Shown here one piece after another: positions 30,930 to 48,127 of a stretch of DNA of 64,000 bases. The translations under genes were made by a program, and so were the position numbers. The stretch is taken from contig JAJLRJ010000001.1 of NCBI GenBank assembly GCA_024195265.1, forward strand, positions 8,912,357-8,976,356, read 5' to 3'. The first letter of the stretch is position 1, and each line of letters opens with the position of its first letter. The notes beneath the pieces were generated by a model, which had not been told where the DNA came from, searched no databases, and saw only the letters and a list, made by a program, of their open reading frames with translations. Source of the stretch: Dendrophyllia cribrosa. Its lineage: Eukaryota > Cnidaria > Anthozoa > Scleractinia > Dendrophylliidae.

Positions 30930-31002
30930 AGTAGTTAAGGACTTGGCGGTACCAGATCAGTTTTGCAAAACTGATCTGATACCATGCCAAGTCTTAACTA
31001 CT
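30930..31002. other. Self-complementary left terminus (73-nt hairpin)
   Basis: The first 73 nt read AGTAGTTAAGGACTTGGC at the outside and return as GCCAAGTCTTAACTACT, around a perfect centre GATCAGTTTTGCAAAACTGATC. One strand could fold into a nearly continuous hairpin. The arms differ by a few bases (GGCGGTACC against GGTATCATGCC in its pairing arm), so the two folding orientations can be told apart. Confidence 0.9.
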
Positions 31003-31075
31003 TCCCATCTGTTGGATTAAAAAATATAGAAAAATTAAATGAAACTATATGTTAATAAAAACAAAATGGTGCGTT
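30930..31075 (+). repeat. Left terminal inverted repeat, 146 bp
   Basis: Identical in reverse complement to 47,982-48,127 by direct reading. Similarity continues inward, with gaps, to about 31,135 (GCGTGATT, CCTTTGCGTGACA). The outer 73 bp are self-complementary. Confidence 0.95.
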
Positions 31076-31178
31076 CATTTCATTGCGTGATTCCACATAA
31101 TAGAATCCTTTGCGTGACACAATTCTCGGAAACACAGGAAGTCTACACAGGATTGAATTAAGGAAAGTTATTTTTGAT

Positions 31179-34100
31179 TTAATTCTTTTTCATTTTATAA
31201 TGTCCATAAGCATATGAATTTATACCATCTTCCAGTATATATCTTTTGTCATCGAAACAGCTGAGTGATACTTTATTGATTTCATAACTTCCTAATTGAT
31301 GGTTATTGCTTCGGATTGTTTTCTTTGTATGATGCATCTGTTTATTTCCTAATAACGTTTCTTTATAATCTTGATGCTTGATATTATTTTTGATAATATT
31401 CTTTTTGATTCCCTTGGCAGTCTTTCCTCCTTTTTGGTTGTCTTTCGTGTAACTATACATTTTAGATCGTAGACCGATGAATTCACAAATAGGAACTCCT
31501 GCGGCTTCATCTTTGAATTTGCCAATAACTTTTTTATTTGTCTTATCAAAATACGGTGAGCTTTCAGGGTAGTCACTGTTATCGAATTTATTTTTATCAT
31601 TCCAAAAGTCTTGGTATACATCTTCAGCTTCGATTTCATAGGTCAAGCTGTCTGTGTCTGTGAAGAGTAACTTGGCTTTGTCTTCATATTTCTTTTTAAT
31701 GTAGTTATAATGGAAATCGTACATTAACGTCTTGCTTAAATCTAAGATGCACATACCCACATATGCCGGCCTGTTTAGGGTAAGTGTTTCTTTGATCTTA
31801 TGCACAGCTACTAGATTTTCGTTGAAGATCTTACTACTAACATACGTTGGTTTACTGGCATATTTCAATAGTTTTTTTTCATCGGTGATTAGTCTTACAT
31901 CTACTCGCTTTCTAATATTTTCCATCGTTTTACCAAATACAGAGTTATTCATAAGTTTAAAGAAGTCTTTTTCAAAAGCATTTTTTGCGTTCTTCCTTTT
32001 TTCTGTATTAAAGTCGATATACTGTTTTAACCAAGGAGATTGATCAAACTCTAGTACTCGATGGACTTTAGTTATTTTCAAACCAAGATCAGTGTATAAT
32101 TGAAGGTTCCTATAATGGAGCACGTATTTTTCTTTGTTCTTCAAGGTTGGTATCAATTTATGAACTAAACCAGTTGATATTTTATATTTCTTCGCGATGT
32201 TTTTACAATACCCAGACAACATACTCTCAGTTACTTTAACCTTTTCCGGCCCTAGCGGGTAGTCATTATGAAGATTGTGTAACCCTTCAGGATACTCTAA
32301 ATCTACTTCCAGTATCAAACCCTTCTCACTATCTTCTTTATACTTGGCTAGGTCTATCTTATCGATCTGTTTTTGTGTCATCCATCTAAAACCGCCAGTA
32401 GGTAGGTATTGTGACATAGCCCAACCATATAGATTGTTAGCATCCAGATACATTATATACTTTGAGGGCACCTTCTCATCATATGTTTTCATGTATTTAT
32501 TGTTTGCTTTACCATACCTATTGGCAATGTAGCTTATTCCACCACGCATTCCTTTTTCGATAAATTGAAACATGTCAATATCAGTTATAAGTTCTAATTT
32601 GATATCAGTCATTTTAAGCATAGCATCCCAAGACAAACCTGGAGATGTGAAATAATGACATGGATCTAATTTGTAGTATTCTAGACAGGTCTTTCTAAAG
32701 TTTTCAAACACATCAGCTAGCAAAAGGATATCAGATTTAAGATATAAATTATGGTATTCACCTATATTTTGAAGATTGAAGGTATTCCACACATTTTGAG
32801 CATGTTTGTAATCTTCATTTGATATATGTTCATCATTCAATATGCTGTAAAATTCTTCTTTTGATGGCAGTTTTTCATTGAACTTTTCAAAGCTATCCAT
32901 GAAGTCATATGGATACACTCCTTTTCTAGCCATCAGATCAAGCTTTTTACCTTTGAATTTTTGAGAGGTATATTTTAATGATTTTCTTGGTAGATTACTC
33001 ACTAGTTTTTCCAAACCAGAGCTCATGAATTGGAAACTATCGAGAAAGGTTAAGTGATTACCCAACATGAAAGCCATATACTTTTCCATATTATTCGGAA
33101 TTGCATTGATATTCATTTGACATTTTCCACCTTTTTTTTTTGTATATGTATGCTTCTTCACTATTTCACCAATCTCTTGCATGATGAAATGAGAGTCATA
33201 CCCACGGAGATTATGGAATATCACAGGTATTTTAATTTCTTCTGGTTTTATTCTGAGTTTTAAATTACAATCTTGATGAGCGGATCCTCTGTACTGACCA
33301 GTGATATGACAGTGATCTCTTACTCTTAGATCGGTTTTGTTATATTCTTTCTCGCATATGTGGCATTTATCAGCTTTTTGGAATTCTTCTTCATCGTCTT
33401 TGGTCATTCTTAATGGTTTATTGAATTCTTTTTTCATAACCTTCTTACAATATTTAACTTCCTCCAGCATAGCTTCCATGAATTTGTATACAGCTCTTTC
33501 GCCTCTATAGACCTGAACTGGTTTACTGTATTTATCATCATAGCAACAGACAACTTTGTATCCATATCCACAGTCTTTATGTTTTTGATATGATTCAGTA
33601 TATGATTTATCATTGTTTGGTTGACATCCTTGTACTTTTTCTGTAATAGCCTCAAAATCAGCATAGATTACAAATGGAACAGCTAACTGTTTATGATAAT
33701 TGTTAAATTTTAATATGTTATTATCTTTTTCAGGCATTTTTACAGCTTGTTTACCATTAATTACAATACAGTTTTCTTTATGATTATTAAGGATTGTTTC
33801 AGAACTGAAGCATTGTAGACAATGCATGCAAAAATGTTTTCTGTGTTCGTGTTTCGTCTGATTGTACATGAATTTATTGAAGTCTTTTATTAATACATAA
33901 TGTTTGTTTTCGTTTTCTGTGATCAATAACAAGTTCATATGATCTTCGTACTTTTCTTTGGATACATAGATAGGATATGGTTGCTTTTCCTCATAACCGA
34001 ATACATTGATATTGATTTCATTTTGTTTTTCTATTTTATTATACAGTTTGACAGTCACTGGGAATTGAATTCCAGAGTAATCTAATTTTTCAATAAAATC

Positions 34101-34970
34101 TTTGTCGACTTTTTTGATTCTCTGTGGATATTTGTCTTGAGGGTTCAAGTACCTTATATGACACCATCTAAAACACTCATTGTCTTTATTTTTCATGTTT
34201 ATCAATCCCTTAGCACTATTTCTTAGTTCTGAAGGTAATTGAATGTAAGATGATCCCTTTAATGGTTCGTATTTAACAATATTAATATAGTGGTTGTCAA
34301 TAGATCTTATTGTCCATCCAGAACCCTCAGAAATCCATTGAGCTACACTATTTAATATCTGTTGTTTAGACAATTGTAACGCTTCAGCGATTTCTATGTG
34401 GTTAATAATCGTCTGAGCCACACTGTTAAAATATGCAGTCTTAGGCACTATTTCATCACCAGCTAGTTTCTCAAATGTGACCTTTAGTGTTTCAACAAAT
34501 TTAATTCCTTTTGTATCACTTAGTAGGGTTTTAAAATGGTTTTCAATACCTTTTCTTGTTTGTTGTAATTGTGTTAAAGGGTCTTTATTATTCTTTAATG
34601 TAATTTCGAAGGATTTAGTATAACCTTTTAGAGCTTTGTTTGTTTGCTCTATCTTAGTCCTTGGAGCTGGTACAGGTTTAACTGTTTTTTTAGTCCTTGG
34701 TGTCTTTTTTAATTGTTCTATTTCTTCTAACCATTCAGAAGGTGGGGGTGGTAATCTTTTCCTCTCAAAATAGTCAACCAATTCTTTTACTGTTTGTCTT
34801 GGTGATTGGTTTGGTTTTACACTCTTGCGAGGTGTTGGAATAGGCCTCCTTGGTGTTGGAACTGGTTTGGTATCATCTACGATGATAATTTCAGGCTTTT
34901 TCTTCTGTTGCTTTAAAAGCAATTTGATTAGTTCTGATTTACTAAGTTTCTCAAGATCGATTTTGTTCAT
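31179..34970 (-). CDS. polB: Protein-primed DNA polymerase B (Polinton type)
   Basis: 1263 aa; replicates the element. Family B motifs are in order: Exo I YADFEAI (D438, E440), Exo II NLRGYDSH (about 587-594), Exo III YLKSD (743-747), Pol A LDANNLYGWAM (842-852), Pol B MNNSVFG (1007-1013), Pol C FTDTDSL (1103-1109). A C2H2-like finger lies at about 381-401, and an HNH/endonuclease-VII-like Cys/His cluster (CHIC at 536, DHCHITG at 552) is embedded between the exonuclease motifs, as is usual in Maverick polymerases. The first ~110 residues are Lys/Pro-rich and carry PVPTPR, PIPTPR and PVPAPR. The ATG follows a TATAGTATATAAA stretch. All catalytic motifs are intact. It closes the minus-strand block next to the left TIR. 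Confidence 0.96.
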   Translation of the reverse strand: MNKIDLEKLSKSELIKLLLKQQKKKPEIIIVDDTKPVPTPRRPIPTPRKSVKPNQSPRQTVKELVDYFERKRLPPPPSEWLEEIEQLKKTPRTKKTVKPVPAPRTKIEQTNKALKGYTKSFEITLKNNKDPLTQLQQTRKGIENHFKTLLSDTKGIKFVETLKVTFEKLAGDEIVPKTAYFNSVAQTIINHIEIAEALQLSKQQILNSVAQWISEGSGWTIRSIDNHYINIVKYEPLKGSSYIQLPSELRNSAKGLINMKNKDNECFRWCHIRYLNPQDKYPQRIKKVDKDFIEKLDYSGIQFPVTVKLYNKIEKQNEININVFGYEEKQPYPIYVSKEKYEDHMNLLLITENENKHYVLIKDFNKFMYNQTKHEHRKHFCMHCLQCFSSETILNNHKENCIVINGKQAVKMPEKDNNILKFNNYHKQLAVPFVIYADFEAITEKVQGCQPNNDKSYTESYQKHKDCGYGYKVVCCYDDKYSKPVQVYRGERAVYKFMEAMLEEVKYCKKVMKKEFNKPLRMTKDDEEEFQKADKCHICEKEYNKTDLRVRDHCHITGQYRGSAHQDCNLKLRIKPEEIKIPVIFHNLRGYDSHFIMQEIGEIVKKHTYTKKKGGKCQMNINAIPNNMEKYMAFMLGNHLTFLDSFQFMSSGLEKLVSNLPRKSLKYTSQKFKGKKLDLMARKGVYPYDFMDSFEKFNEKLPSKEEFYSILNDEHISNEDYKHAQNVWNTFNLQNIGEYHNLYLKSDILLLADVFENFRKTCLEYYKLDPCHYFTSPGLSWDAMLKMTDIKLELITDIDMFQFIEKGMRGGISYIANRYGKANNKYMKTYDEKVPSKYIMYLDANNLYGWAMSQYLPTGGFRWMTQKQIDKIDLAKYKEDSEKGLILEVDLEYPEGLHNLHNDYPLGPEKVKVTESMLSGYCKNIAKKYKISTGLVHKLIPTLKNKEKYVLHYRNLQLYTDLGLKITKVHRVLEFDQSPWLKQYIDFNTEKRKNAKNAFEKDFFKLMNNSVFGKTMENIRKRVDVRLITDEKKLLKYASKPTYVSSKIFNENLVAVHKIKETLTLNRPAYVGMCILDLSKTLMYDFHYNYIKKKYEDKAKLLFTDTDSLTYEIEAEDVYQDFWNDKNKFDNSDYPESSPYFDKTNKKVIGKFKDEAAGVPICEFIGLRSKMYSYTKDNQKGGKTAKGIKKNIIKNNIKHQDYKETLLGNKQMHHTKKTIRSNNHQLGSYEINKVSLSCFDDKRYILEDGINSYAYGHYKMKKN

Positions 34971-35085
34971 TTTATATACTATAGTATAGATAATTCTTTA
35001 TATGTATTCAGTTGGTGCGTTTAACCTTTATCAAGAATTTAAGTGATCCAATAATGGATCCATTAAACTATATATTTCTTAGTTT

Positions 35086-35334
35086 TTATTGTGTGTTTAA
35101 ATGAACGAATTCACGGATCTGCCTATTAATATTATCCATATGTTTATTAGTTTTCAAATGACAGAATTTTCCAGCAAGTGAGTAGTTGATATTGTTATCA
35201 CATGCACGGCAATACCACTCTTTATTTAACATATAACGAGTTTTGGATCTTTTAATAGCTTCTTTTTTGGCTTCTTGGGTTTGGTATATAGGCGGTCGCC
35301 CCCTACCTCTTTTTATTATTACTTCTTTTTCCAT
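35086..35334 (-). CDS. Small AT-hook / C2H2-like zinc-finger protein
   Basis: 82 aa from the internal ATG at 35,334, chosen because the AT-rich promoter-like stretch AATATATAGTAATAATATA lies just upstream; the open frame extends 20 codons further. RGRGRPP near residue 10 is an AT-hook-type minor-groove-binding motif. CRAC followed by 13 residues and H-x5-H makes a C2H2-like finger. It probably binds DNA, and could act in replication, packaging or transcription of the element. It lies between polB and the coiled-coil gene, on the same strand. Short proteins of this design are common in Polinton-like viruses as I remember; its specific role is unknown. Confidence 0.75.
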   Translation of the reverse strand: MEKEVIIKRGRGRPPIYQTQEAKKEAIKRSKTRYMLNKEWYCRACDNNINYSLAGKFCHLKTNKHMDNINRQIREFVHLNTQ

Positions 35335-35425
35335 TATATTATTACTATATATTATTTTATCTTTATATGCGTTTAAATATGGTTGAGAATTCAAATGATC
35401 CAGTTATGAATCTTTTAAACTATAT

Positions 35426-35734
35426 TCAGATATTCATTTCAGTTTTCAATTCAGCTATATTATCAACTTTTGTTTGTTTCAACACATTACATTCCTCATC
35501 GTATTTATTGTTTTCTATCTCATTGCAGATAATATTCAATAACTGTTTCAATGTTATATCTTCATCCATTTCATGTATTTTTTTATGATAAAGTTTCAAT
35601 AATTTCTTTTTATATTGTAACATATCCAATCTACGCTCATTATCGTATATTTTATCACGAAGATTGTCTGATTCATCTTCACATTCATTAATTTGAACAT
35701 TTATTTTTTCAATATATTTCTTAATACCACTCAT
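35426..35734 (-). CDS. Hypothetical coiled-coil protein
   Basis: About 102 aa from the ATG at 35,734, preferred over the upstream in-frame ATG because it directly follows GTTTATATATATC, a promoter-like stretch like those before other genes of the element. The sequence is strongly charged with heptad-like spacing (residues ~5-60), suggesting a coiled coil. No catalytic motif or membrane segment is seen. Function unknown. It sits between the integrase and AT-hook genes on the same strand. Confidence 0.62.
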   Translation of the reverse strand: MSGIKKYIEKINVQINECEDESDNLRDKIYDNERRLDMLQYKKKLLKLYHKKIHEMDEDITLKQLLNIICNEIENNKYDEECNVLKQTKVDNIAELKTEMNI

Positions 35735-35748
35735 GATATATATAAACA

Positions 35749-36705
35749 TTATATATTTTTGACATCTTTTAACGGTATCCATGAATTAAATTCTTTTGGA
35801 TAACCAGACCATGATACCAAAGCTTGTTTTTTCTTGTAATCCCTCCTAATGACTTTGCCAATTCTGAATACATCCTGTTTTGCTAATTGTAATTCAGGTT
35901 CATAAAATGACCCTTCTATTGATTCATTATTAAGATCCTTTAACTTATATGTAATAGGGTTTGTGTATTGTATCTTATCGACTGTAAACACTTCTTCAGT
36001 CCAGTTTGGTGTATAACCCTTGTCGAACACATTCCGTTTATACTTTGAAATTCTAACCTTATCACCAACTTTAAATTTTGGTTTATATGATAATAGTTCC
36101 GTATCATATAGATTGAAATAAACAGTTCCTTCATTCTTTTTCATAGATGCTTCAATAGGTTTCATTTTAATACTTGAATGCTTTGTACTGTTGTATTCAT
36201 TTAATAGTTTTGGTAACATGTCTAAATATTGTGTTGTATTTTGAGCTGTAAATTGTTTCCACATTTTAGATTTTAATGTTCTGTTAAATCTCTCAATAAT
36301 AACAGCTTTACCTTCATTGAAAGTAGAATACATCTCAATATTATTTTTCTTTAGCCAGTCTTTGAAAGTTTTATTATAGAATTCAGACCCTTGGTCTACC
36401 CAAATAAATTTAGGTTTCCGTTTGGATTTTTTAATAACATCATCAAATGATTCAGTAATTGTATTACCTGTTTTATTTTTAATAGGGATGCTCCAAGCAA
36501 ATTTCGAAAACACATCAATGATGTTTAACAAATATCTATATCCTTTATTCCATTTTGAAAACTTCTGCATTTCTACAAGGTCAGCGCTCCAAATATCATC
36601 TATTCCATTAACAATAACACGTCTCTTTTGAAATTTCCGTTTGATTGGTTTATGTAGTTCATTTGCAAGGAGTTCAGCCCAATCATTACTCAACTCCTTT
36701 TTACG
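35749..36705 (-). CDS. Retroviral-type (rve) integrase with C-terminal chromodomain
   Basis: About 318 codons from the presumed frameshift point; it inserts the element, making the 6-bp duplication. The RNase-H-fold core has the catalytic triad (numbered from the TTG codon at 36,693) D38 in WSADLVEM, D100 in WVDQGSEF and E134 in IIERFNRT, with 33 residues between the last two. The last ~40 residues (GKVIRRDYKK..VSWSGY..FNSWIP) form a chromodomain, which could direct integration to modified chromatin. No ATG occurs between the upstream stop and D38; the first in-frame ATG is codon 42, after the catalytic Asp. The frame is -1 relative to the PLA2 ORF, and a canonical slippery site with a pseudoknot lies at the overlap. 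I therefore infer expression as a PLA2-integrase fusion. Non-AUG initiation or splicing are alternatives. Confidence 0.93.
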   Translation of the reverse strand, partial: RKKELSNDWAELLANELHKPIKRKFQKRRVIVNGIDDIWSADLVEMQKFSKWNKGYRYLLNIIDVFSKFAWSIPIKNKTGNTITESFDDVIKKSKRKPKFIWVDQGSEFYNKTFKDWLKKNNIEMYSTFNEGKAVIIERFNRTLKSKMWKQFTAQNTTQYLDMLPKLLNEYNSTKHSSIKMKPIEASMKKNEGTVYFNLYDTELLSYKPKFKVGDKVRISKYKRNVFDKGYTPNWTEEVFTVDKIQYTNPITYKLKDLNNESIEGSFYEPELQLAKQDVFRIGKVIRRDYKKKQALVSWSGYPKEFNSWIPLKDVKNI

Positions 36706-36711
36706 TTTTTT
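36642..36711 (-). promoter_or_regulatory. Candidate -1 programmed ribosomal frameshift signal (A AAA AAC + pseudoknot)
   Basis: On the minus strand the PLA2 frame reads TCA AAA AAC GTA, giving an in-phase X XXY YYZ heptamer A AAA AAC (36,711-36,705). After a 5-nt spacer, AAGGAGTT (36,699-36,692) pairs perfectly with AACTCCTT (36,674-36,667). In its loop, TGATTGG (36,685-36,679) pairs with CCAATCA (36,648-36,642), an H-type pseudoknot with loops of about 6, 4 and 18 nt. A -1 slip enters the integrase frame exactly, 3 codons before the PLA2 frame would stop at 36,690-36,692. All pairings were checked by eye; function is inferred. Confidence 0.82.
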
Positions 36712-37364
36712 GACTTCCTTTTAACACCTAATCCAAGTTTTTGTTTTACATCAATCGTGTTTCTAGCCAACCAATGCCCCCATTGTCTTTCATTATACGG
36801 TACGTTGTCTAAAGCTTGAACCATTTTTCGGTCTGCCTTATTTTTACATTTCCTATCATCCTTGCAGACTGAATAATCGACATCATGTTGCATTGCTATT
36901 TCATCAGTTCTTCCTGTAGGTTGGTCATATATTTCTAATATTTGGCCAGTTGTTGGGTCATATTTCACTTGACTCTTTAAATCATTATATGGGCCAGTAT
37001 ATTTATGGCCGGGTAATGTCCAACCGCCTTTTGGTTTCGGAAGCTTCCCAATGGCCTTATGAATATCAATCCCACTACCTTTATGCAATGGATCTAGTTT
37101 CTTACTAATATCTGAAGTTAAACTATCTAAGGCTTGATCCAAATATTTATCAGCCATTCCTTTTATTTTTTGTTTAGCATAACCAGATTTAATTGCCTTT
37201 GATGCTCCGATTCTACCTAAATTATACAAACCTTTTAAAGCGCTTTTAGCTGCTATTTCACCAAGACTGTGACTACCTTCTATATTTAAAAAGCCCCCAT
37301 CTTGTGAGGGCTCAATTAGTTTCCCTGTTTTTGTTTTATAAATTTGGTTTTTGTTATACCACAT
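36690..37364 (-). CDS. PLA2-domain minor virion protein
   Basis: 224 aa. The C-terminal half resembles the parvovirus VP1-type secreted phospholipase A2 fold: a calcium-loop-like KYTGPYNDL (121-129) preceded by LPGH, and a catalytic-type QHDVDY (159-164) with His160/Asp161. Such domains breach endosomal membranes during entry in known viruses. The N-terminal half is helical and Lys/Ala-rich. KGSGI (95-99) lies just before the PLA2 domain and is a candidate maturation site for the element's protease. The start (ATG 37,364) overlaps the 53-aa zinc-protein ORF by 49 nt. The 3' end holds the slippery site, so a fraction of product may continue into integrase. The PLA2 assignment rests on motif spacing; activity is untested. 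Confidence 0.82.
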   Translation of the reverse strand: MWYNKNQIYKTKTGKLIEPSQDGGFLNIEGSHSLGEIAAKSALKGLYNLGRIGASKAIKSGYAKQKIKGMADKYLDQALDSLTSDISKKLDPLHKGSGIDIHKAIGKLPKPKGGWTLPGHKYTGPYNDLKSQVKYDPTTGQILEIYDQPTGRTDEIAMQHDVDYSVCKDDRKCKNKADRKMVQALDNVPYNERQWGHWLARNTIDVKQKLGLGVKRKSKNVKRS

Positions 37365-37477
37365 TCAGCGCAAGTGCATTTCAACATAGGTCGACCATTT
37401 TTAGTTTTCACATATCGTTCGCTTCCTGGAACACATTCAGTGACTTTCTTCTGTCCAACACAATATGATTTTACCAT
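37316..37477 (-). CDS. DUF5679-like small zinc-ribbon protein
   Basis: 53 aa. It starts at the ATG right after TTATATATATA and ends with TAA at 37,316-37,318. The layout matches my memory of DUF5679 proteins of large and Polinton-like DNA viruses: an N-terminal YCV..KK, a central VKTKNGRPMLK and a C-terminal C-x4-C-type cluster (CTCAEC). The first Cys pair is altered: family members usually have C-x2-C, but here YCVGQKK keeps only one Cys. The role is unknown; a virion or nucleic-acid-associated function is plausible. It lies between the protease and PLA2 genes and overlaps the latter by 49 nt. Confidence 0.72.
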   Translation of the reverse strand: MVKSYCVGQKKVTECVPGSERYVKTKNGRPMLKCTCAECGITKTKFIKQKQGN

Positions 37478-37489
37478 TATATATATAAG

Positions 37490-38770
37490 TTAGATATTTC
37501 TAAAATAATGTTCGAGGAATCTCTCATTCTTCATTGTATCATATATGTCAAATACTTGCAATAAATTATAATACGAATTCCCCTTATTCATTTCGTTCAG
37601 AAAGTATAAACAGAAGTAGCCACATGTAGACGTTTTTATGTTTTGGATTTGGTTGTTTTGGTGAAGCAGTGTCATATTCCTTCTTTTCGCATGATTTACG
37701 ATCTCTTGAAATGGAGGCATACCAAAACTGTCAAAATAATTTATCACGTTGTCTTTTACATAAGTTGTAACCCAATGAGATCCTGCCATATAACTAGGTT
37801 CCAGATTGTAAATAAATAATGCTTGGCTATGATTATGTGGAACTCTTTCATCCCTTGACAGAACATCACTGATTGGGATGTTTAAATATCTGCACCATTT
37901 TATTAGATCATGATTACTTAACGGGATGTCTTTGTGGAATTTCGGTTTTACAGTATTGCTCCGAGAAGAGGAATACCATTGAAAGGGCTGCTTTTCCCTA
38001 ATAGCAAGCCTTCGCCCCTTTTGGTTGTCTTTTTTTTTTGGTTGTTTTTTTTTAATCCCCATACCTATCGTATTATCGGGCCAACTCCCATAAAATGGAG
38101 GTGGTCTATATACACCAATTCTTGGAGCTCCCATACCCTTTTTCTTACTAGTTCCCATTCGTGGAGCCCCACTACCAGTTTTACCAGTCAAAGCATTTAG
38201 AAGGAGTGGAACACCAATGCTTGCCAACAGAGTGCCTAAAAATCCACCTGATTGTGTTTTTGTTGGTTCCACATGAACACCTGAACCTGATTGAAGGGCT
38301 TTCAATATATCCTGTTTTTGTTTCGCAGATAAAAGATGCTTATATTCTATCAGCTTATTAATTTTGTCTTGTGGTACGAGAAAACCACCCGACTGTACGC
38401 CTTTGCCAGATATTGATTTCACAATCTGAGAAGCACCTTCTGAAGCCAATCCAGCAAGAGCTGATAGCCCAAGGGTTTTGCCTATAGTTGGTGCTAGCGT
38501 CTTTCCAATACTTAAGATAGAAGTTAGTAGACTACCTCCAACCTGTTTTCTGATATTACTTTTAACAAGTTTGATATCCATACCCTTATTCATCATACGA
38601 TTCTTCTCCAATCTCTTCTTCACCATCGATGATACATATAAAACGTCATTGCCATGAAGAGATTTATTTGATAGTCTGAGAACAATAGTTTCCCTTTTTT
38701 TGAAAGCATTGCTAAGATTCTTCTTTTGATTGTCAGACAAATTTACTTTGATTTCAAAAAGCTGAGTCAT
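37490..38770 (-). CDS. Minor capsid protein fused to adenain-type cysteine protease
   Basis: 426 aa in one uninterrupted frame. Residues ~285-426 are an adenovirus-protease-like (C5) domain: His332 (GSHW), Asp347 (NYFDSFG), Gln376 and Cys383 (TSTCGYFC), with the Gln-to-Cys spacing (7) of adenain. Residues 1-~240 form a separate module: a conserved-looking N-terminal domain, Gly-rich hydrophobic segments (80-115, 175-195), and candidate cleavage motifs SGGF (127-130, 174-177), SGSGV (161-165) and TGSGA (198-202). RPPPFY (222-227) contains a PPxY motif. A Lys-rich linker encoded by two long A runs (plus strand 38,030-38,052) joins the halves. Probable roles: virion scaffold or membrane-active protein plus maturation protease. 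Other Polintons as I know them keep these separate. Confidence 0.92.
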   Translation of the reverse strand: MTQLFEIKVNLSDNQKKNLSNAFKKRETIVLRLSNKSLHGNDVLYVSSMVKKRLEKNRMMNKGMDIKLVKSNIRKQVGGSLLTSILSIGKTLAPTIGKTLGLSALAGLASEGASQIVKSISGKGVQSGGFLVPQDKINKLIEYKHLLSAKQKQDILKALQSGSGVHVEPTKTQSGGFLGTLLASIGVPLLLNALTGKTGSGAPRMGTSKKKGMGAPRIGVYRPPPFYGSWPDNTIGMGIKKKQPKKKDNQKGRRLAIREKQPFQWYSSSRSNTVKPKFHKDIPLSNHDLIKWCRYLNIPISDVLSRDERVPHNHSQALFIYNLEPSYMAGSHWVTTYVKDNVINYFDSFGMPPFQEIVNHAKRRNMTLLHQNNQIQNIKTSTCGYFCLYFLNEMNKGNSYYNLLQVFDIYDTMKNERFLEHYFRNI

Positions 38771-38834
38771 TTCTTATATATAATATATATTATATAAAAT
38801 TTCACATAATATATATGAAATAAGGATATTTATT
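38771..38834 (-). promoter_or_regulatory. AT-rich promoter-like stretch upstream of the protease gene
   Basis: Minus strand: TTTTATATAATATATATTAT lies about 15-35 nt before the protease ATG. It resembles the AT-rich stretches before polB, the coiled-coil and the fibre genes. Inferred from position and composition only. Confidence 0.4.
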
Positions 38835-40121
38835 TTACACTATAACCAATTCATTACCCACCTTGTCAATGACAACAGATTCTTCATATAGGACTACAGC
38901 ATGAACATTGAAGTTTGCAACTGCATTCTGGCTTAGTCTATACCTAAAGATTAGCTGTTTCGGATCTCTTGTTATTTTTTCAGTTTGATACGTAAGATTA
39001 AAGTAAATCAACCCATACAGAGAACTATAGTTTGCTAAGTTCAGCTGAGTTCCGCTGTTATAGTCATTTTTCCGCATAGTATATGACATCAAATCGTTAA
39101 AGATTCTCACTTTTGATTCTGTATCATACTCTGTTTCTGGATAAAAGACTCCATTTCCATATTCTAGTCTACAGTTTAAAAGGGAAGAGTTATTATCAGC
39201 AGCATTAAGTTTAAAAGTGTTCATTAGATAAGGACTGTCTTCTTCAACTGCATCATTAGGCGGGTTTGTTCTTTTCAAGTAAACAAAAATGTGTTTGACA
39301 TTGTCAATACTGCTTGAAATCTGGAAAAATCCTGATGATTGTGTAGGAGCTGATGCTTCGTACATTTCCCTTAAATATTTCCACTGAGTTTCTTTAAGAA
39401 ATGAACTAACGAAATTGTCATACAATGAATCCTTTGGGGTTAGTTTTGGCACCCATAGCAAAAACCTATTAACAACAATTCTTCCAGCATCAGTTCCATT
39501 AGCCATGTGAATGAGTTCACCATCGTTTTGTAGCTCAATGTTAAATTGTATTTGCATTGGTACAAGCATCTTATCTTCAAGTTCTTCAAAAAATGAGAAC
39601 CTGTTCAATGGTATAATCACATTAATGTTTTTAGCACCACCAGCCCCATTGTCTCGAAGTGCTTGAGTTTGCAACCGGCGAGCTTCAAATCCTGTGTTAT
39701 TCGCAGCTGTTGTAGCATTCGTGTCCAAATACCAGAAACTGTTTTTAGCGACTGATCTGCTATAATCATCAGAATACTCTAGCAGGTTTTTAACAAAAGT
39801 GACTTTATGGAGATTGTCAGTGTCATAAACTATTTTTCCTGCAGATTTAATCATTATGTGGTCAATTAAGGAATGCCCTCCATTAATTACCGTTATTCGA
39901 TCAGCAGCAGCATATCCTGCTCCGTCTGCTAATTTCTGTAGTTGGAATTGGACTTCAATATAGGCATTGTACCAATCGTAGAAACTCGATCGATCATTAA
40001 TTGTAAATTTATAACCATTTTTCGTTTGGTGTTGACCGTTAGCTGGAGACCTGATTACATCATCGAGTTGGAATCGCACCAACTCATTTCTTTGAAGAAA
40101 ATTATCTGTTCTAAAAGACAT
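38835..40121 (-). CDS. Major capsid protein (double jelly-roll, hexon-like)
   Basis: 428 aa, about the usual size for Polinton/adintovirus major capsid proteins. It is predicted almost entirely beta, without membrane segments or signal peptide. Its opening (FLQRNELVRFQLDDVIRSP) and phrases such as SFYDWYNAYIEVQF and LIDHIMIKSAGKIVYDT fit the first jelly roll of this family as I know it, with a second beta-rich half from about residue 220. Trimers would form capsid facets. The ATG follows TATAACATAATAATAT, shared with the next virion gene. Position between protease and penton genes is the expected morphogenesis order. Assignment is by pattern and context; profile comparison was not possible. 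Confidence 0.87.
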   Translation of the reverse strand: MSFRTDNFLQRNELVRFQLDDVIRSPANGQHQTKNGYKFTINDRSSFYDWYNAYIEVQFQLQKLADGAGYAAADRITVINGGHSLIDHIMIKSAGKIVYDTDNLHKVTFVKNLLEYSDDYSRSVAKNSFWYLDTNATTAANNTGFEARRLQTQALRDNGAGGAKNINVIIPLNRFSFFEELEDKMLVPMQIQFNIELQNDGELIHMANGTDAGRIVVNRFLLWVPKLTPKDSLYDNFVSSFLKETQWKYLREMYEASAPTQSSGFFQISSSIDNVKHIFVYLKRTNPPNDAVEEDSPYLMNTFKLNAADNNSSLLNCRLEYGNGVFYPETEYDTESKVRIFNDLMSYTMRKNDYNSGTQLNLANYSSLYGLIYFNLTYQTEKITRDPKQLIFRYRLSQNAVANFNVHAVVLYEESVVIDKVGNELVIV

Positions 40122-40142
40122 ATATTATTATGTTATATAATT
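40122..40142 (-). promoter_or_regulatory. Candidate late promoter of the major capsid gene
   Basis: Minus strand: TATAACATAATAATAT directly before the ATG. A near-identical TATAACATAATAGTAT precedes the basic virion protein gene (40,592-40,610), and related TAACGTAATAATATAAC and ATAATGTAACTTTATTATAT precede the PPxY and penton genes. Confidence 0.55.
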
Positions 40143-40171
40143 TTAACAATTAAAAAATATATTCATTGATT

Positions 40172-40591
40172 CTATACAAATCTAACTCTACGTCTTCTCC
40201 TCAAACCATCTCCAGAAATGAGTCTATTCAGTATCATATCAGTACTTTCTTGATCTAGTTTTGGCTGATAATGTTGCTGCAGCTGTTTAATGGGTGAGGA
40301 TGGAACAATTGCTGTTTGTCTTGTAGCTCCTTTTCTCAAATTTGTCAATCTTTTCATTATCAAATCACCAGATTTTTGAGATACCGCCTTACCCAGTCGC
40401 TCACCTGCATGGGATATCCCCGATTCTAACGCCTTCTTTGCTATTGGCTTAGCAAATTTCTTGAAAACAGATGATGCAACACTCTTCAACGGTTTGAAAA
40501 TATTATCAACGATAATTCCCGATCCTTTGTGTTGATATACAAATTTACCAAGTTTTGGATGGTAAAATCTTTTGAATTCATACGGTTTCAT
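40172..40591 (-). CDS. Basic virion/core protein with N-terminal maturation site
   Basis: 139 aa, strongly basic, ending in an Arg run (LRRRRRVRFV). Residues 22-26 are KGSGI, the motif also found in the PLA2 and PPxY proteins; cleavage there would remove a ~25-residue leader, as adenovirus core and minor proteins are trimmed. The rest is helical with Ala/Lys segments. It could condense DNA or line the capsid; adenovirus pVI/pVII/pX-like roles are plausible but I cannot show homology. It sits between the capsid and penton genes and shares the capsid promoter-like motif. Confidence 0.72.
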   Translation of the reverse strand: MKPYEFKRFYHPKLGKFVYQHKGSGIIVDNIFKPLKSVASSVFKKFAKPIAKKALESGISHAGERLGKAVSQKSGDLIMKRLTNLRKGATRQTAIVPSSPIKQLQQHYQPKLDQESTDMILNRLISGDGLRRRRRVRFV

Positions 40592-40610
40592 TATACTATT
40601 ATGTTATATT
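40592..40610 (-). promoter_or_regulatory. Candidate late promoter of the basic virion protein gene
   Basis: Minus strand: AATATAACATAATAGTATA immediately precedes the ATG, nearly identical to the sequence before the major capsid gene. Confidence 0.5.
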
Positions 40611-41355
40611 ATTCTATACTTTTCAGAATTAGTGAGAAAGATGTATCTGCTCCATTCAGGTCAACTAATCTTCTTTTTCCATCAGTAATGTATACCCTGA
40701 TACTACTAATATTATTCTTATTGACTGGATTGAATGTGACTCTTCGTGGTTCGAGGGTAAAGGAGTAACTAGGTTGGAGTACACTGGTCGAGAAGGAATA
40801 AATGATGTCTGTATCTTGACCGTCGACAAGACTGTCGTTTATTAGGTTACAATGGATATTCAGGATATCTGTGTCTTGACTGAGATTGGGCACTTTCGGC
40901 CCTATATTTGTTTCATTAGATAATACTGTCTTATCAAACCCGATTAGATCATTAAAATTGGAATGCGTCAAATCAAGCTGATAATTCTGAGTCAATGTAA
41001 TCGTAACCCTAAATGTTGTATTATCGAATTCAAGAGTGATAGGATACGTATCACCAGTCTTCGTTATATCCTTGATATATGTATTGAAGTCTGTATAATT
41101 CCATACTCCGGCTGGAAAGGTGATGTTGTTAAATGTTGAACCACTATCAGAGCTAAATTTAATTAATTGATTATTGTATCCAGCATTAACATTAAACCAT
41201 GTAAAACTCATATTGATAATTCGGTTAAGGCCGATCACATATTGAGAATTACTATCCAATATCATTGGTCTAGTAAATTTTGTTGTGAAATCTTCAGGTT
41301 TATTATTCCCTTGATTTTTTACACTATAAGATGATAAAACTATCTCTCGTTCCAT
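40609..41355 (-). CDS. Penton-like minor capsid protein (single jelly-roll)
   Basis: 248 aa, beta-rich, no membrane segment. The start (REIVLSSYSVKNQGNNKPEDFTT) and later features such as LEPRRVTFNPVNK and IRVYITDGKRRLVDLNG match my recollection of Polinton/adintovirus penton proteins, which form pentamers at capsid vertices and anchor fibres. Its stop overlaps the promoter-like region of the basic protein gene. The ATG follows TAACTTTATTATATAA. It lies beside the PPxY gene in a continuous morphogenesis block. Confidence 0.83.
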   Translation of the reverse strand: MEREIVLSSYSVKNQGNNKPEDFTTKFTRPMILDSNSQYVIGLNRIINMSFTWFNVNAGYNNQLIKFSSDSGSTFNNITFPAGVWNYTDFNTYIKDITKTGDTYPITLEFDNTTFRVTITLTQNYQLDLTHSNFNDLIGFDKTVLSNETNIGPKVPNLSQDTDILNIHCNLINDSLVDGQDTDIIYSFSTSVLQPSYSFTLEPRRVTFNPVNKNNISSIRVYITDGKRRLVDLNGADTSFSLILKSIE

Positions 41356-41368
41356 TTATATAATAAAG

Positions 41369-42391
41369 TTACATTATATTTTTAAAATATTGACCATACA
41401 ATTTACTATATTGTGACCTATTGATTTTCGACATTTTCAATAATGTGTCTAGTATAGTTACTCCCATATTCCTCATCTCAATGCTGGTATTTCCTGCTAA
41501 TCTTTCACCAATTACCAACTCCAATTTTTTGAGAAGCTGCTTTACATCATTAAAAAACATAATATTTCCACCTCTCTGTTTTCTTCCTCGGCCGTTGATT
41601 CCGGAACCTTTCATTGTTTGCAGTTTAGTCTCATAATGTTTTATGTATTCATTTAAAGTAACTCCTGCGTTGTCTATTCTTTTGTTTTTCATTTGCCTTT
41701 CACCTGATGATATCTCCCCCTTATTGTATTGTTTTGTAACATCTGACTTATAACCTTTCAATTGATTCCTTTTAAATTTCGCATCCTTTATAATCTTCAA
41801 AAGATATTTCCTGGTTTTTTGGTGTGTCATTTCTTGTTGATTTAATACCTTTTCCACATTTTCATAATCCGTAATACCAAGATCATTCAAAATCAAATTA
41901 CTTGCATCTTCATCATCTAATCCATAATCGATCCCATCGTCGTCATCATATTCTGGTGGTAATTCATCTGGTTCATCACCAAAGTACTGAGGATCAACAT
42001 AAATATCCTTATTTCCTTCCAGAAGATCTTGTAAAGATGCTTCATATGTTGGTGGTTTTGGCACCAGTTGTTTTTCTTGATTTGGTGGGACATAATCACC
42101 AAATAAATCATCAACTTGCATGTCTTCAAAAGGGTCAACTTCAGGCATGTAGTCAATACCTTGGTCACCTTTTTTAGGTGCTCGTTTCTTTCTTATAGGT
42201 ACCCTTAAATCTACATTACTGTCGATAACATCATCTAATTTACTAGTCACAGGTTTGAATACCTTAGCCAATGACTCTTGACTTATCTTATGACTAAGAT
42301 TATGTTTTGTGATTGCATCATGTACAAGATTAATCTTATTACCTAATAGAGATTTACTCTTTGCAAGTTCTTTCCATTTAAGTAAACTCAT
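41369..42391 (-). CDS. PPxY-bearing virion protein
   Basis: 340 aa. The middle is acidic and proline-rich with two PPxY motifs, PPTY (113-116) and PPEY (145-148), the type that recruits Nedd4-family ubiquitin ligases. Adenovirus pVI and many enveloped viruses use such motifs in trafficking or budding. KGSGI (261-265) followed by a basic GRGRKQRGG stretch is a candidate protease site that would release the last ~75 residues, a helical segment (VIGERLAGNTS..ILDTLLKMSKINRSQY) of a kind recurrent in Polinton proteins. It probably works as an internal capsid protein analogous to pIIIa/pVI, but homology is not shown. It is divergently transcribed from the packaging ATPase. Confidence 0.77.
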   Translation of the reverse strand: MSLLKWKELAKSKSLLGNKINLVHDAITKHNLSHKISQESLAKVFKPVTSKLDDVIDSNVDLRVPIRKKRAPKKGDQGIDYMPEVDPFEDMQVDDLFGDYVPPNQEKQLVPKPPTYEASLQDLLEGNKDIYVDPQYFGDEPDELPPEYDDDDGIDYGLDDEDASNLILNDLGITDYENVEKVLNQQEMTHQKTRKYLLKIIKDAKFKRNQLKGYKSDVTKQYNKGEISSGERQMKNKRIDNAGVTLNEYIKHYETKLQTMKGSGINGRGRKQRGGNIMFFNDVKQLLKKLELVIGERLAGNTSIEMRNMGVTILDTLLKMSKINRSQYSKLYGQYFKNIM

Positions 42392-42527
42392 TTATTGTTA
42401 TATTATTACGTTACATAAAATTTGGAAATCATATATAGAAAAGAGCATTTTACACCGTGTTGTACACTGTGTTGTACACCGTGTTATACACCATGTTATA
42501 TTGAAATAATATACCCATATAATATAA
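42392..42527. promoter_or_regulatory. Divergent promoter region with 12-bp direct repeats
   Basis: This 136-bp gap separates the leftward virion block from the rightward ATPase block and must hold both start regions. It contains four tandem ~12-bp units of the type GTGTTGTACACC at about 42,452-42,502. TAACGTAATAATATAAC lies next to the leftward ATG, and AATATACCCATATAATATAA next to the rightward ATG. Regulatory function is inferred. Confidence 0.55.
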
Positions 42528-43169
42528 ATGATAATACCAAATTACGATGCCGATGATGATGTAACCTCAAATTATAAACAGTTATATCCTTTCATGCCTG
42601 ACCGATGCTTCCGGATGCTAATTTGCGGCCCATCTGGGTCAGGAAAAACAAACGTTCTGCTAGACATGATCTATAGGCTACTCTATTTCGATAAAATTTA
42701 TCTATATGCTAAAAACTTGGAACAATCAAAATATCAACATTTACTGGAAACATTGAAACCAATCAGTGAAGAGGTGGGTTACCCAATTATTGAAGCAAGT
42801 AATGATCAAATATTGCCTTTGTCCGAATTAAATTGTGATAACCAAAAGTTGGTTATTTTTGATGACTATCTTAATACTGGTAGTAAAAATGATGCAGAAA
42901 TAAGAAACTACTACACTAACTCAAGAAACAAAAATTGCAGTTGCATATATCTTAGTCAATCGTTTTATGACACTGACAAATGTATCCGTCTTAACTCTAC
43001 ACATTACTGCATTTTTGAATTTCCTTCTCCAAACGAACAAAACAGGATTAGTAGAGAGCTTGGTATAAAAAAATCTGACTATGAAAAAGCCACTAATGAT
43101 TCATATTGCTTCATATATATTGATAAACCAAGGAAATTCACAACCAAGAATTTCAATGAAAAAATATAA
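42528..43169 (+). CDS. A32-like DNA-packaging ATPase
   Basis: 213 aa. Walker A is CGPSGSGKTN (residues ~36-45), Walker B is LVIFDDY (~108-114), and YLSQSFYD (~144-151) is a sensor-like motif typical of the FtsK/HerA-type A32 packaging ATPases of Polintons, virophages and large DNA viruses. It drives genome encapsidation. Length fits the family. The ATG is in AATATAAATG, directly downstream of the divergent promoter region. It leads the rightward block, followed 19 nt later by the fibre start. Confidence 0.95.
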   Translation: MIIPNYDADDDVTSNYKQLYPFMPDRCFRMLICGPSGSGKTNVLLDMIYRLLYFDKIYLYAKNLEQSKYQHLLETLKPISEEVGYPIIEASNDQILPLSELNCDNQKLVIFDDYLNTGSKNDAEIRNYYTNSRNKNCSCIYLSQSFYDTDKCIRLNSTHYCIFEFPSPNEQNRISRELGIKKSDYEKATNDSYCFIYIDKPRKFTTKNFNEKI

Positions 43170-43188
43170 TATACTCATATTATATATA

Positions 43189-45312
43189 ATGAGTTATTCA
43201 AACGGATTACTACCATCAACAACAACAACAACAACAACAACAACATCACAAGGGCCACCAGGCCCGCCAGGCGTTGGCTTCAAATTGACAGATGATGGTA
43301 ATTATGATATGCAAAATAAAAAAATAGTAAATATAGGAACAGTTACTGGTTTGAATGATGTAGTTGATTTCAAATTTATTAGAAATACATTTGTTAGTAA
43401 GCATTTACCATTAGTTACAGCAAATCTTGATATGAAAAACAATAATATAAGAAATTTAAAAACACCAATTTCAGAAAAAGATGCTGTTAACAAAGAGTAT
43501 GGAGATACGCATTATTTAAAGTTAGATGGAACAACTCATTTGACTGCAGATTTGGATCTACGTGGACATAAATTAATTCTACCTGGAGAAATTGATATGG
43601 ATCGAAAATTGATTACAAATATGGATACAGATGAAAACAATGATTTGTCAGCTGTTAATATGATTACTTTGAAAAAATATCATCCTGATACCAATCCTTC
43701 ACATGAGGTCTTGAAAGATATTGATTTGAAAGAACAGTACAATATTGTCAAGTCGAAACCACAGACATACTTGGATTTAGCTGCAAGTTACAACAATCTT
43801 GTTTCATATAATGATGTTAAAAAAATTTTTGTCAGTCGTAAAGAGATGTTGTCAATGGAGACTGGTTTGGATATGAATAATAATACAATTTTCAATATAA
43901 AAGATCCAACAGCAGTTGATCATGCTGTGAATAAAGGGTATGTGGATAATTTAACTAATCTAAAAGCAGACAAAACATATGTTGACGCTAAAACAAGCGG
44001 AAATAACCTAAGAATAAATCAAAATACGAATGCAATAAATAATTTAGAAACACTCAAACTTGATAAAAAGGTAGAAATCGATCTCGATATGCATAATCAT
44101 AAGATTATAAATTTAAAAACACCTTTACCAAATGAGAATGGTGCTGCCGTCAATGTTTCGTTTTTCAACTCCGAACTCAACGATTCTAATTCGAACATGT
44201 ACACACGAATAACAGACGATTATAAGAGTTATGTAAACAAGTCACATATATCTTCCTCAGCTAAAAAAGACGTTTTCAGATACATGATGGAAGATGTTAA
44301 TCAGAGCTCATCGGAGAGTAATATTGTTGTCAATGGGATCATTGATTTTGATGGATCGCCGCATAAAATTAACAAGAAAGCCTATGATATAACTCTTACG
44401 ATAGACAATGACAATGACTTCGCGTCAAGGATAGGTTTAAATGCACTAAATCTTTCTCAAGGTGAGTACACTATGGTGATTGAGTTTTTCGTTCCAGATA
44501 AAGCTTATATTAGTTCGACAACTGTTAATGTTGTATCAACAGTCATTAATGTTGGGCAACAAACAACAAAAATATTTAACACTGAAGGATATACGAAAAG
44601 CATTGTTCACCTGCATAAATGGCAGGTCAGTCCTCCAGAATATATAATGATAGATCTTCATGGAAGTATAACAAAAGGAAATACAAATAAAGCACATCTA
44701 ATCGTTTATGGTGTTCAAGGACATATCTCGAGTGTTGATTCAGATGTATATGATTCTATTTATACAATTGAAAATGGAAAAATGACAATGGAGACAGATA
44801 TTGATTTAAATGGTAGAAACATAATTGGTTTACCTATAAAGAAACAAAAATTCATATTTTTAGGCAATTATATGAAAAATAAGAACACTAATGATATCAT
44901 ATTCAACGGTTCATCATCATTTATTGCATTAATTAATATGAAAATAGTAAAATTATGGTTAATTATATTGGATAATAAACCGCCTGAAGGATACAAAAAA
45001 ATGGTTATATTAATCGGTAACACTTCATTTGCACCGCAGAATTGGGAAAAACATCAAATAAAATTTTATACACTTTCAATATATCAACATCAATTGTCAA
45101 TTTCAGGGAAGGTACAGTTGTACAAATCAAATTACTATCAATTGATCATATTACATATGCACCTTATAATTGCCATATCAGTGTACTTTTTGAAGAGTTT
45201 TAATATAATAACTAAAACAGGCATCTTCAATTTTAATCACATAGGAAAAACATACACCATATTTTTATATATAAAAGCTACATTTAATATAATCAATAAA
45301 TATATATGCTGA
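43189..45312 (+). CDS. Collagen-like / repeat fibre (receptor-binding) protein
   Basis: 707 aa from the ATG after CATATTATATATA; the open frame extends 36 codons upstream into the ATPase gene, but that part is probably untranslated. After a short leader comes a run of nine Thr (ACA repeats) and GPPGPPGVG, a tiny collagen-like stretch. Then follow irregular repeats with the pattern LDMxNNxIxNLKxPxxxxDAVNKxYxD (at ~85-115, ~255-285, ~330-355), a design of trimeric tail or fibre shafts. The region from ~400 to ~560 may be a globular head. The penton partner is at 40.6-41.4 kb. The last ~100 residues are rich in Ile/Tyr and unlike the shaft. The ACA run may vary in length. Function as attachment fibre is inference. 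Confidence 0.75.
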   Translation: MSYSNGLLPSTTTTTTTTTSQGPPGPPGVGFKLTDDGNYDMQNKKIVNIGTVTGLNDVVDFKFIRNTFVSKHLPLVTANLDMKNNNIRNLKTPISEKDAVNKEYGDTHYLKLDGTTHLTADLDLRGHKLILPGEIDMDRKLITNMDTDENNDLSAVNMITLKKYHPDTNPSHEVLKDIDLKEQYNIVKSKPQTYLDLAASYNNLVSYNDVKKIFVSRKEMLSMETGLDMNNNTIFNIKDPTAVDHAVNKGYVDNLTNLKADKTYVDAKTSGNNLRINQNTNAINNLETLKLDKKVEIDLDMHNHKIINLKTPLPNENGAAVNVSFFNSELNDSNSNMYTRITDDYKSYVNKSHISSSAKKDVFRYMMEDVNQSSSESNIVVNGIIDFDGSPHKINKKAYDITLTIDNDNDFASRIGLNALNLSQGEYTMVIEFFVPDKAYISSTTVNVVSTVINVGQQTTKIFNTEGYTKSIVHLHKWQVSPPEYIMIDLHGSITKGNTNKAHLIVYGVQGHISSVDSDVYDSIYTIENGKMTMETDIDLNGRNIIGLPIKKQKFIFLGNYMKNKNTNDIIFNGSSSFIALINMKIVKLWLIILDNKPPEGYKKMVILIGNTSFAPQNWEKHQIKFYTLSIYQHQLSISGKVQLYKSNYYQLIILHMHLIIAISVYFLKSFNIITKTGIFNFNHIGKTYTIFLYIKATFNIINKYIC

Positions 45313-45707: not shown

Positions 45708-45733
45708 TATGTACTAATAATATATAGAATAGA

Positions 45734-46216: not shown

Positions 46217-46245
46217 ATTTTATTTTATGAGAATCATGCAACAGG

Positions 46246-46812: not shown

Positions 46813-46912
46813 TCTATACTATTATATGAGATTATATTTTTTTAAAACAATAGCTATAAGCGGTGCGTGTCTAAATTCCAGAAAACAAAAATAGCGAACA
46901 TGTAAAAATCGG

Positions 46913-47742: not shown

Positions 47743-47982
47743 ATGGATAAACAGCGTTTTATTGCGTTTAGAACAGACCTGGCAAAGTTGAGAGATCTTG
47801 TAAAGGGAAATCAAAGTCCACAATATGTTGAAAATACTTTCTCTGAGTTAGTGAAAAAATACCCAGAACTAGCTGCTGATCCGGAAGGTTTACCTAATTT
47901 GAAAGTTGGACCTTGTACTGCAAGTTCCCAGAAGAAAAGTGCGAGAATCATGTCACGCAAAGGAAATCACGCAATGGAATAA
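47743..47982 (+). CDS. Small right-end ORF extending to the TIR
   Basis: 79 aa from the ATG in ACTGATGG; an upstream in-frame ATG at 47,704 is possible, but the truncated duplicate shares this start context. The sequence is charged and mostly helical (RFIAFRTDLAKLRDLVKG) with a Lys/Ser-rich tail. No known domain. The last ~15 codons fall in the diverged inner part of the TIR, and the stop touches the identical part. The palindrome array lies directly upstream and may regulate it. Possible early regulatory protein; function unknown. Confidence 0.5.
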   Translation: MDKQRFIAFRTDLAKLRDLVKGNQSPQYVENTFSELVKKYPELAADPEGLPNLKVGPCTASSQKKSARIMSRKGNHAME

Positions 47983-48127
47983 ACGCACCATTTTGTTTTT
48001 ATTAACATATAGTTTCATTTAATTTTTCTATATTTTTTAATCCAACAGATGGGAAGTAGTTAAGACTTGGCATGGTATCAGATCAGTTTTGCAAAACTGA
48101 TCTGGTACCGCCAAGTCCTTAACTACT
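47982..48127 (-). repeat. Right terminal inverted repeat, 146 bp
   Basis: Inverted copy of 30,930-31,075. Inner, diverged similarity extends to about 47,940 and covers the 3' end of the ORF at 47,743-47,982. Confidence 0.95.
48055..48127. other. Self-complementary right terminus (73-nt hairpin)
   Basis: Exact inverse of 30,930-31,002. The asymmetric bases have the same outer/inner orientation at both ends. Confidence 0.9.

What the first reader, a model, noticed from the sequence alone, without database searches (positions are those of the whole stretch)
36642..36711. Gag-pol-style -1 frameshift signal joining a PLA2 virion protein to the integrase
Seen directly: the PLA2 frame contains an in-phase A AAA AAC heptamer. 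Five nt later an 8-bp perfect stem starts (AAGGAGTT/AACTCCTT), and 7 bases of its loop (TGATTGG) pair perfectly with CCAATCA downstream, giving an H-type pseudoknot. A -1 slip enters the integrase frame exactly. The integrase has no ATG before its first catalytic Asp; its first ATG is codon 42, after D38. Known: this heptamer and spacing are used by retroviruses and coronaviruses. Inference: the element makes a PLA2-integrase fusion of about 538 aa, putting integrase into the virion at low stoichiometry with an entry protein, as Gag-Pol does. I do not recall this being described for Polintons.
Basis: partly seen in the sequence, partly recalled or inferred. Interest (0 to 1): 0.93.

Follow-up and report, generated by a model that had tools for sequence, protein, structure and literature searches.

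The report
Possible frameshift joining PLA2 and integrase
In a young-looking virus-like element (a Polinton) in an unnamed, probably animal, genome, the gene for a lipid-cutting enzyme overlaps the integrase gene in another reading frame at a sequence that could make ribosomes slip and fuse the two, but relatives solve the same problem in other ways, so the slip is plausible and not proven.

Summary
The sequence observation is correct: an in-phase A AAA AAC, a 5-nt spacer, an 8-bp stem, a 7-bp pseudoknot arm, and the integrase in the -1 frame with no ATG before its first catalytic Asp. The structure is unusual (stem plus knot in 1 of 20,000 synonymous resamplings; 25 of 33,408 element positions). 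The element is a Polinton with near-identical TIRs and a 6-bp target duplication.

Relatives change the interpretation. PLA2-integrase fusion is common: 35 of the 120 listed integrase hits carry both domains in one predicted protein. Others start the integrase at an ATG where the window has TTG. Many have no called start before the first Asp (43 of 120 clusters). PLA2 tails place the integrase at -1 in 53, +1 in 14 and undetermined in 44 of 111. The fusion idea is thus supported for the family, while the junction frame is labile and the heptamer alone is weak evidence. I favour -1 frameshifting here at about 0.45, against an indel and a TTG/reinitiation start. No close relative's DNA could be read, so conservation of the stems is untested.

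The parts
30930..31092 (+). Left terminal inverted repeat of the Polinton, beginning AGTAGTTAAGG, preceded by target duplication GCCGTG
   Evidence: I4, 99% complementary; outermost 146 nt identical; 6-bp duplication on both sides
47965..48127 (-). Right terminal inverted repeat, ending CTTAACTACT, followed by GCCGTG
36690..37364 (-). PLA2 ORF, 224 aa plus stop
   Evidence: Pfam PF08398 Phospholip_A2_4 E 2.7e-9
36705..36711 (-). Slippery heptamer A AAA AAC in the PLA2 frame
36692..36699 (-). Stem 1, 5' arm AAGGAGTT
36667..36674 (-). Stem 1, 3' arm AACTCCTT
36679..36685 (-). Stem 2 (pseudoknot), 5' arm TGATTGG
36642..36648 (-). Stem 2 (pseudoknot), 3' arm CCAATCA
36691..36693 (-). TTG codon of the integrase frame, at the place where several relatives have their called initiator ATG; overlaps the PLA2 stop (TTGA)
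35749..36720 (-). Integrase open frame (stop to stop), -1 relative to PLA2; rve core plus weak chromodomain match
   Evidence: PF00665 E 2e-13, PF00385 E 2e-4, below its cut-off
36568..36570 (-). First ATG of the integrase frame, downstream of the first catalytic Asp
31179..34997 (-). Type B DNA polymerase open frame (stop to stop), 1272 aa
   Evidence: PF03175 E 3.6e-18 and PF02945 E 1.7e-6
37490..38773 (-). Probable C5 protease open frame, open across A runs of 10 and 9
   Evidence: PF00770 only E 0.074, below cut-off; runs
42528..43169 (+). A32-like packaging ATPase ORF
   Evidence: PF04665 E 4.6e-11

Best explanation
The junction is most likely a working -1 ribosomal frameshift site. Ribosomes translating PLA2 slip back one base on A AAA AAC, helped by the stem/pseudoknot 5 nt downstream, and a fraction continues into the integrase, giving about 538 residues of PLA2-integrase; the rest stop 4 codons later as plain PLA2. 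It does by recoding what many relatives do with one continuous predicted protein: tie integrase to the PLA2 protein. Shown: sequence, frames, absence of an ATG before the first Asp, statistical excess of structure, predicted PLA2-integrase fusions in relatives. Inferred: that slippage happens, its rate, that the product is made and used, and that it enters the virion.
For: Motif geometry and null tests. The element looks young: 6-bp target duplication and outermost 146 nt of the TIRs identical. Ten open frames hold 32 A/T runs of 6 or more, including runs of 10 and 9 (runs in overlapping frames counted twice, frames picked because they are open, completeness not checked against relatives). The nearest integrase, P0047 (84% identical, sister with support 99), is also called only from the Met after the first Asp (one sequence on a 2,008-base contig). 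Integrases called from after that Asp are abundant: 43 of 120 clusters, 4,385 of 7,842 member sequences. PLA2 tails put the integrase at -1 in 53 of 111 usable cases. Of the 34 group-A tails among them, the near PLA2 kin P0122-P0125 included, 33 were called -1, 1 undetermined, 0 +1 (my count). A_AAA_AAC is among the shiftiest heptamers for mammalian ribosomes (PMC5009743, passages).
Against: The junction state is labile: 67 changes among fused, ATG-started, extended and start-less forms on the 163-row integrase tree, with states differing between rows of identical or near-identical core. In a second PLA2 group -1-type and +1-type tails are mixed, 24 and 16 rows, as homopolymer drift would give. 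A contraction in an A run that ends in C leaves an in-phase A AAA AAC as a by-product, so the heptamer is not independent of the indel rival. Most rows of the window's integrase clade have a called ATG start (17 of 27). Mavericks of Sf insect cells have PLA2-domain CAP and INT as separate ORFs (PMC5803895, passages). A plain hairpin (-13.6 kcal/mol) competes with the pseudoknot. Stem thresholds are post hoc and the site was picked as an anomaly. No DNA of close relatives, so no covariation.
Confidence: 0.45

Rival explanations
1. Copy-level or lineage-level indel. The working parent had PLA2 and integrase in one continuous frame, as many relatives do; a small length change in the A-rich junction (mutation, or an assembly error) split them. 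The heptamer is a by-product and the stem is chance.
For: In-frame fusions are frequent (35 of 120 by Pfam; 36 of 240 sequences by motif). Linker residues of the fusions resemble the window's integrase-frame residues upstream of its TTG. Junction states flip often. Near PLA2 relatives such as P0121 and P0135 have aberrant, shortened ends.
Against: No other break seen in ten open frames with 32 long A/T runs (frames chosen as open); young-looking insertion; sister P0047 shares the start-less call; structure excess would be coincidence.
Confidence: 0.28
2. The integrase is a separate cistron that starts at the TTG (36693) by near-cognate initiation or by termination-reinitiation at the TTGA stop/start overlap, or it started there at an ATG that this lineage has lost.
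For: Relatives are called from exactly this residue or within a residue or two: MSNDW (P0077, P0103), MNNDW (P0024), MSKNDW (P0001, P0006) against window LSNDW. An ATGA overlap would give the same -1 geometry. TTG has G at -3. PLA2 (CAP) and INT are separate ORFs in Sf Mavericks (PMC5803895, passages).
Against: Starting from TTG is inefficient in eukaryotes (recalled). Integrase-frame residues upstream of the TTG (KKRKK) resemble fused and extended relatives, as if translated. The stem excess is then unexplained.
Confidence: 0.19
3. RNA-level joining: an intron or polymerase slippage on the A run brings the frames together.
For: An NCBI gene model from Oculina patagonica (P0108) joins PLA2 and integrase while lacking the conserved integrase N-terminus, as a predicted intron would do.
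Against: Any such intron would remove residues conserved in other relatives; the window's run is only 6 A. P0108 looks like an annotation bridge, not evidence of splicing.
Confidence: 0.08

Closest known systems
Retroviral gag-pro/gag-pol -1 frameshifting (A AAA AAC type)
   Same: Heptamer, short spacer, stem/pseudoknot, -1 entry into an integrase-bearing frame (retroviral details recalled; heptamer class in PMC5009743, passages)
   Different: DNA element, no reverse transcriptase seen among the Pfam-scanned ORFs; upstream product is a PLA2 protein, not shown to be a structural polyprotein; no functional data
IS3-family OrfA/OrfB insertion sequences
   Same: Overlapping ORFs with the catalytic ORF often at -1, fused by frameshifting (PMC5009743, passages)
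   Different: Bacterial; [quoted passage not shown] here it is PLA2
Adintovirus Penton and Hexon-Adenain candidate frameshifts
   Same: Hypothetical -1 frameshift signals in virion genes of related animal viruses (PMC11071296, section 16)
   Different: Other genes; KnotInFrame prediction; no PLA2-integrase junction in the parts read
Sf Maverick CAP (PLA2 domain) and INT
   Same: Maverick with a PLA2-domain protein and a chromodomain integrase (PMC5803895, passages)
   Different: Described as separate ORFs; no fusion or frameshift of them in the passages read
In-frame PLA2-integrase proteins of relatives (e.g. P0057, 98 members)
   Same: Same two domains in the same order in one predicted protein
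   Different: No frameshift needed

Membership tests
Polinton/Maverick element | Type B DNA polymerase | tested here: met
   PF03175 E 3.6e-18; protein priming not tested
Polinton/Maverick element | rve integrase (chromodomain optional) | tested here: met
   PF00665 E 2e-13 above cut-off; chromodomain E 2e-4, 21.7 bits under the 25.1 cut-off
Polinton/Maverick element | Packaging ATPase | tested here: met
   PF04665 E 4.6e-11
Polinton/Maverick element | C5 adenain-like protease | tested here: inconclusive
   PF00770 E 0.074, below cut-off
[quoted passage not shown]
   429-aa ORF 38835-40124 has no Pfam match; not folded
Polinton/Maverick element | TIRs with AGT...ACT ends and 6-bp target duplication (recalled definition) | tested here: met
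-1 programmed frameshift site | X XXY YYZ heptamer in the upstream frame, downstream ORF at -1 | tested here: met
-1 programmed frameshift site | Stimulatory stem or pseudoknot 5-9 nt downstream | tested here: met
   Predicted only; null tests
-1 programmed frameshift site | Conservation of site and compensatory changes in relatives | tested here: inconclusive
   Frame relation inferred from protein tails only: 53 at -1, 14 at +1, 44 undetermined of 111; no close relative's DNA
-1 programmed frameshift site | Measured frameshifting | not testable with these tools
   Needs reporter, profiling or peptides
Gag-Pol-like strategy | Fusion protein packaged at low stoichiometry | not testable with these tools
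   No virion data

The most novel reading that the evidence does not exclude
A clade of Polintons, probably of animals, makes integrase only as a C-terminal extension of a PLA2 entry-type protein, either from one ORF or by -1 frameshifting with a pseudoknot. Integrase would then ride into the particle on a membrane-active protein, a Gag-Pol-like solution reached independently in a DNA virus-transposon, with lineages switching between fused and recoded forms through A-run length changes.
Probability: 0.38. Interest if true: 0.82.

Novelty: new variant of a known kind. Interest (0 to 1): 0.6.

Why it matters
If true, it would be a Gag-Pol-style coupling of integrase to a virion-type protein in a double-stranded DNA element, and a testable hint that Polintons carry their integrase into the next cell. 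Even without frameshifting, the frequent one-protein PLA2-integrase prediction in relatives is a functional clue that I did not find described in the searches made (61 of the held library; passages read in five papers, and one section).

Tried and rejected
Relatives' DNA: two integrase scans and one PLA2 scan of viral contigs found none. One scan of genome contigs found only L001, distant (35%) with its integrase in pieces; I saw no PLA2 ORF in its ORF list by eye, without a profile search. The window's own assembly could not be searched (below). So covariation was not tested.

Splicing was considered and set low, because an intron would remove conserved residues. Assembly error was considered and set low within the indel rival, because longer A runs elsewhere stay in frame. 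The idea that the heptamer proves programming was rejected: a run contraction makes one automatically. My first regex count of start-less integrases (56 of 120) misplaced some rows and was replaced (43 of 120; five rows without a found core labelled by hand, four of them start-less). Rows P0029, P0068 and P0264 are labelled 'extended' though their Pfam column shows both domains, so fused forms are undercounted there. In the tree five integrase rows without a recognisable core were left out; in the tree, 140 rows were kept by motif and the rest dropped, and tail types there are by spelling, not by the result. 'Start' in relatives is the database's gene call, not an experiment, and fused ORFs are taken as the source predicted them. 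A note gives the heptamer three bases off; one search corrects it. Literature search (no paper; one paper) added little.

Full report
Observation. The PLA2 ORF (37364-36690, PF08398) carries A AAA AAC in phase at 36711-36705 and stops at 36692-36690. The integrase frame (36720-35749, rve core) lies at -1. Five nt after the heptamer an 8-bp stem begins (36699-36692 with 36674-36667); 7 bases of its loop (36685-36679) pair with 36648-36642. The first ATG in the integrase frame (36570) comes after the first catalytic Asp.

Chance. Keeping the integrase protein fixed and resampling codons, a stem of at least 8 pairs at the right distance came up in 11 of 20,000 trials and with a knot of at least 7 in 1; dinucleotide shuffles gave 81 and 4 of 20,000. 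The local folding energy was reached in 6 of 5,000 resamplings. Over the element, 25 of 33,408 positions (4 sites, this one included) have the same geometry; over the window, 4 of 930 heptamers have a stem with a knot of at least 6. The site is thus unusual at roughly 1 in 1,000 or rarer, with the caution that the thresholds follow the observation. ViennaRNA's best unknotted structure keeps the same 8-bp stem with three further inner pairs (-13.6 kcal/mol), so a plain hairpin competes with the pseudoknot.

The element. It spans 30930-48127, begins AGT and ends ACT, is flanked by GCCGTG on both sides, and its TIRs are identical over the outermost 146 nt. It encodes a type B polymerase, an A32-like ATPase and an integrase; the protease match is below cut-off and the capsid ORF has no Pfam match. 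Ten open frames contain 32 A/T runs of 6 or more, a few counted twice where frames overlap. These frames were chosen because they are open, and were not compared with full-length relatives. A young-looking, otherwise open element makes a random break exactly here less likely, though one event cannot be excluded.

Relatives. The integrase search gave 7,476 proteins, of which 120 were listed. In 35 of the 120, one predicted protein carries both PF08398 and PF00665; one of these (P0108) is a gene model that seems to skip the junction. The junctions typically run from ...LGLGV or the like through a lysine-rich linker into ...ELHKPI. So PLA2-integrase fusion appears to be a normal product of this family. 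Other relatives are called from an ATG at or within a residue or two of the place where the window has L(TTG)SNDW. A search with the integrase from its first ATG gave 7,818 proteins, 120 listed: 43 clusters (4,385 of 7,842 member sequences, including the largest with 2,108) are called only from after the first Asp, 7 from just before it, 52 from near the ATG position, 16 from further upstream, and 2 are fused (P0264, counted as 'upstream', is also fused by Pfam; proteins longer than about 478 aa were outside the length limit).

Frame of the relatives from proteins alone. The PLA2 search gave 1,795 proteins, 120 listed. For 111 usable C-terminal tails I asked whether any DNA coding the tail could, in another frame, code the integrase N-terminus better than shuffled tails: 53 were called -1, 14 +1, 44 neither. 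Of the 34 tails with the group-A ending (SRRVKKTGKKN and close variants, the near PLA2 relatives P0122-P0125 among them), 33 were called -1, 1 neither, 0 +1 (counted). A second group mixes -1-type and +1-type tails, 24 and 16 rows by spelling, of which one search left part undetermined. This test leans on chosen reference peptides and free codon choice, and related rows are not independent.

Lability. On the integrase tree (163 rows) the junction states need 67 changes against 89 for shuffled labels, and rows with identical or nearly identical cores differ in state. The window pairs with P0047 (84% identity, support 99), which is also called only from after the Asp; their 27-row clade has 17 ATG-started, 5 fused, 2 start-less and 2 extended rows besides the window. 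The PLA2 tree has few columns, needs 38 changes against 83 for shuffled labels, and does not place the window firmly.

Interpretation. An A run ending in C that contracts leaves an in-phase A AAA AAC behind, so the heptamer supports frameshifting only weakly; the downstream structure and the clean look of the element carry the weight. I rank functional -1 frameshifting first (0.45), then a junction indel in an element whose parent had one frame (0.28), then separate initiation at or near the TTG (0.19), then RNA-level joining (0.08). Packaging of the product in virions is inference only.

Known work. PMC5803895 (passages) describes Sf-cell Mavericks with a PLA2-domain CAP protein likened to parvovirus VP1 and a chromodomain integrase as separate ORFs; its two uses of 'frameshift' concern errantiviruses. 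PMC11071296 (passages, section 16) reports KnotInFrame-suggested -1 sites in adintovirus Penton genes and a similar relationship for Hexon-Adenain. PMC5009743 (passages) describes IS-element frameshifting that fuses a catalytic ORF often at -1, and ranks A_AAA_AAC among the shiftiest heptamers with mammalian ribosomes. PMC3671162 (passages) names PLA2 in a figure legend, as the phospholipase A2 domain of a parvovirus capsid protein. PMC11071308 has no occurrence of phospholipase, PLA2 or frameshift. Searches for Polinton or Maverick with frameshift, PLA2 or integrase terms (one search listed 30 of 41) showed no title or abstract start that describes a PLA2-integrase fusion or frameshift; most listed papers were not opened.

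Noticed in passing
Relatives among P0007-P0116: Single predicted proteins with PLA2 and integrase domains are common in related Polintons, apart from any frameshift.
   Followed up: yes
P0242, P0281, P0074, P0092: Some integrase clusters are very large (2,108, 604, 1,142 and 620 members), pointing to heavy amplification of this Polinton group.
   Followed up: partly
PLA2 relatives, group B (e.g. P0170, P0162): Closely related PLA2 proteins end in two different frames of what seems the same lysine-rich junction (KKKTPKI or KKKRPKFSMARKISR), implying length drift of an A run.
   Followed up: partly
31179-34997: The polymerase ORF carries an Endonuclease_7 match (residues 529-580, E 1.7e-6) just before the polymerase domain; a weak match of this kind is also tabulated for Sf Maverick POLB (PMC5803895).
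   Followed up: partly
46249-46818: 190-aa open frame with a weak Poxvirus VLTF3-like match (E 0.0024, below cut-off).
   Followed up: no
46916-47197: Three tandem 94-nt repeats (99% alike) inside the element near its right end, with a 79% copy at 47515.
   Followed up: no
24498-27044, 48213-49581 and 52027-53422: Repeats on both sides of the element, inverted between the first two stretches and direct between the first and third.
   Followed up: no
P0108, Oculina patagonica gene model: The model joins PLA2 to integrase but lacks the conserved integrase N-terminus, probably an annotation intron bridging a frame break.
   Followed up: partly
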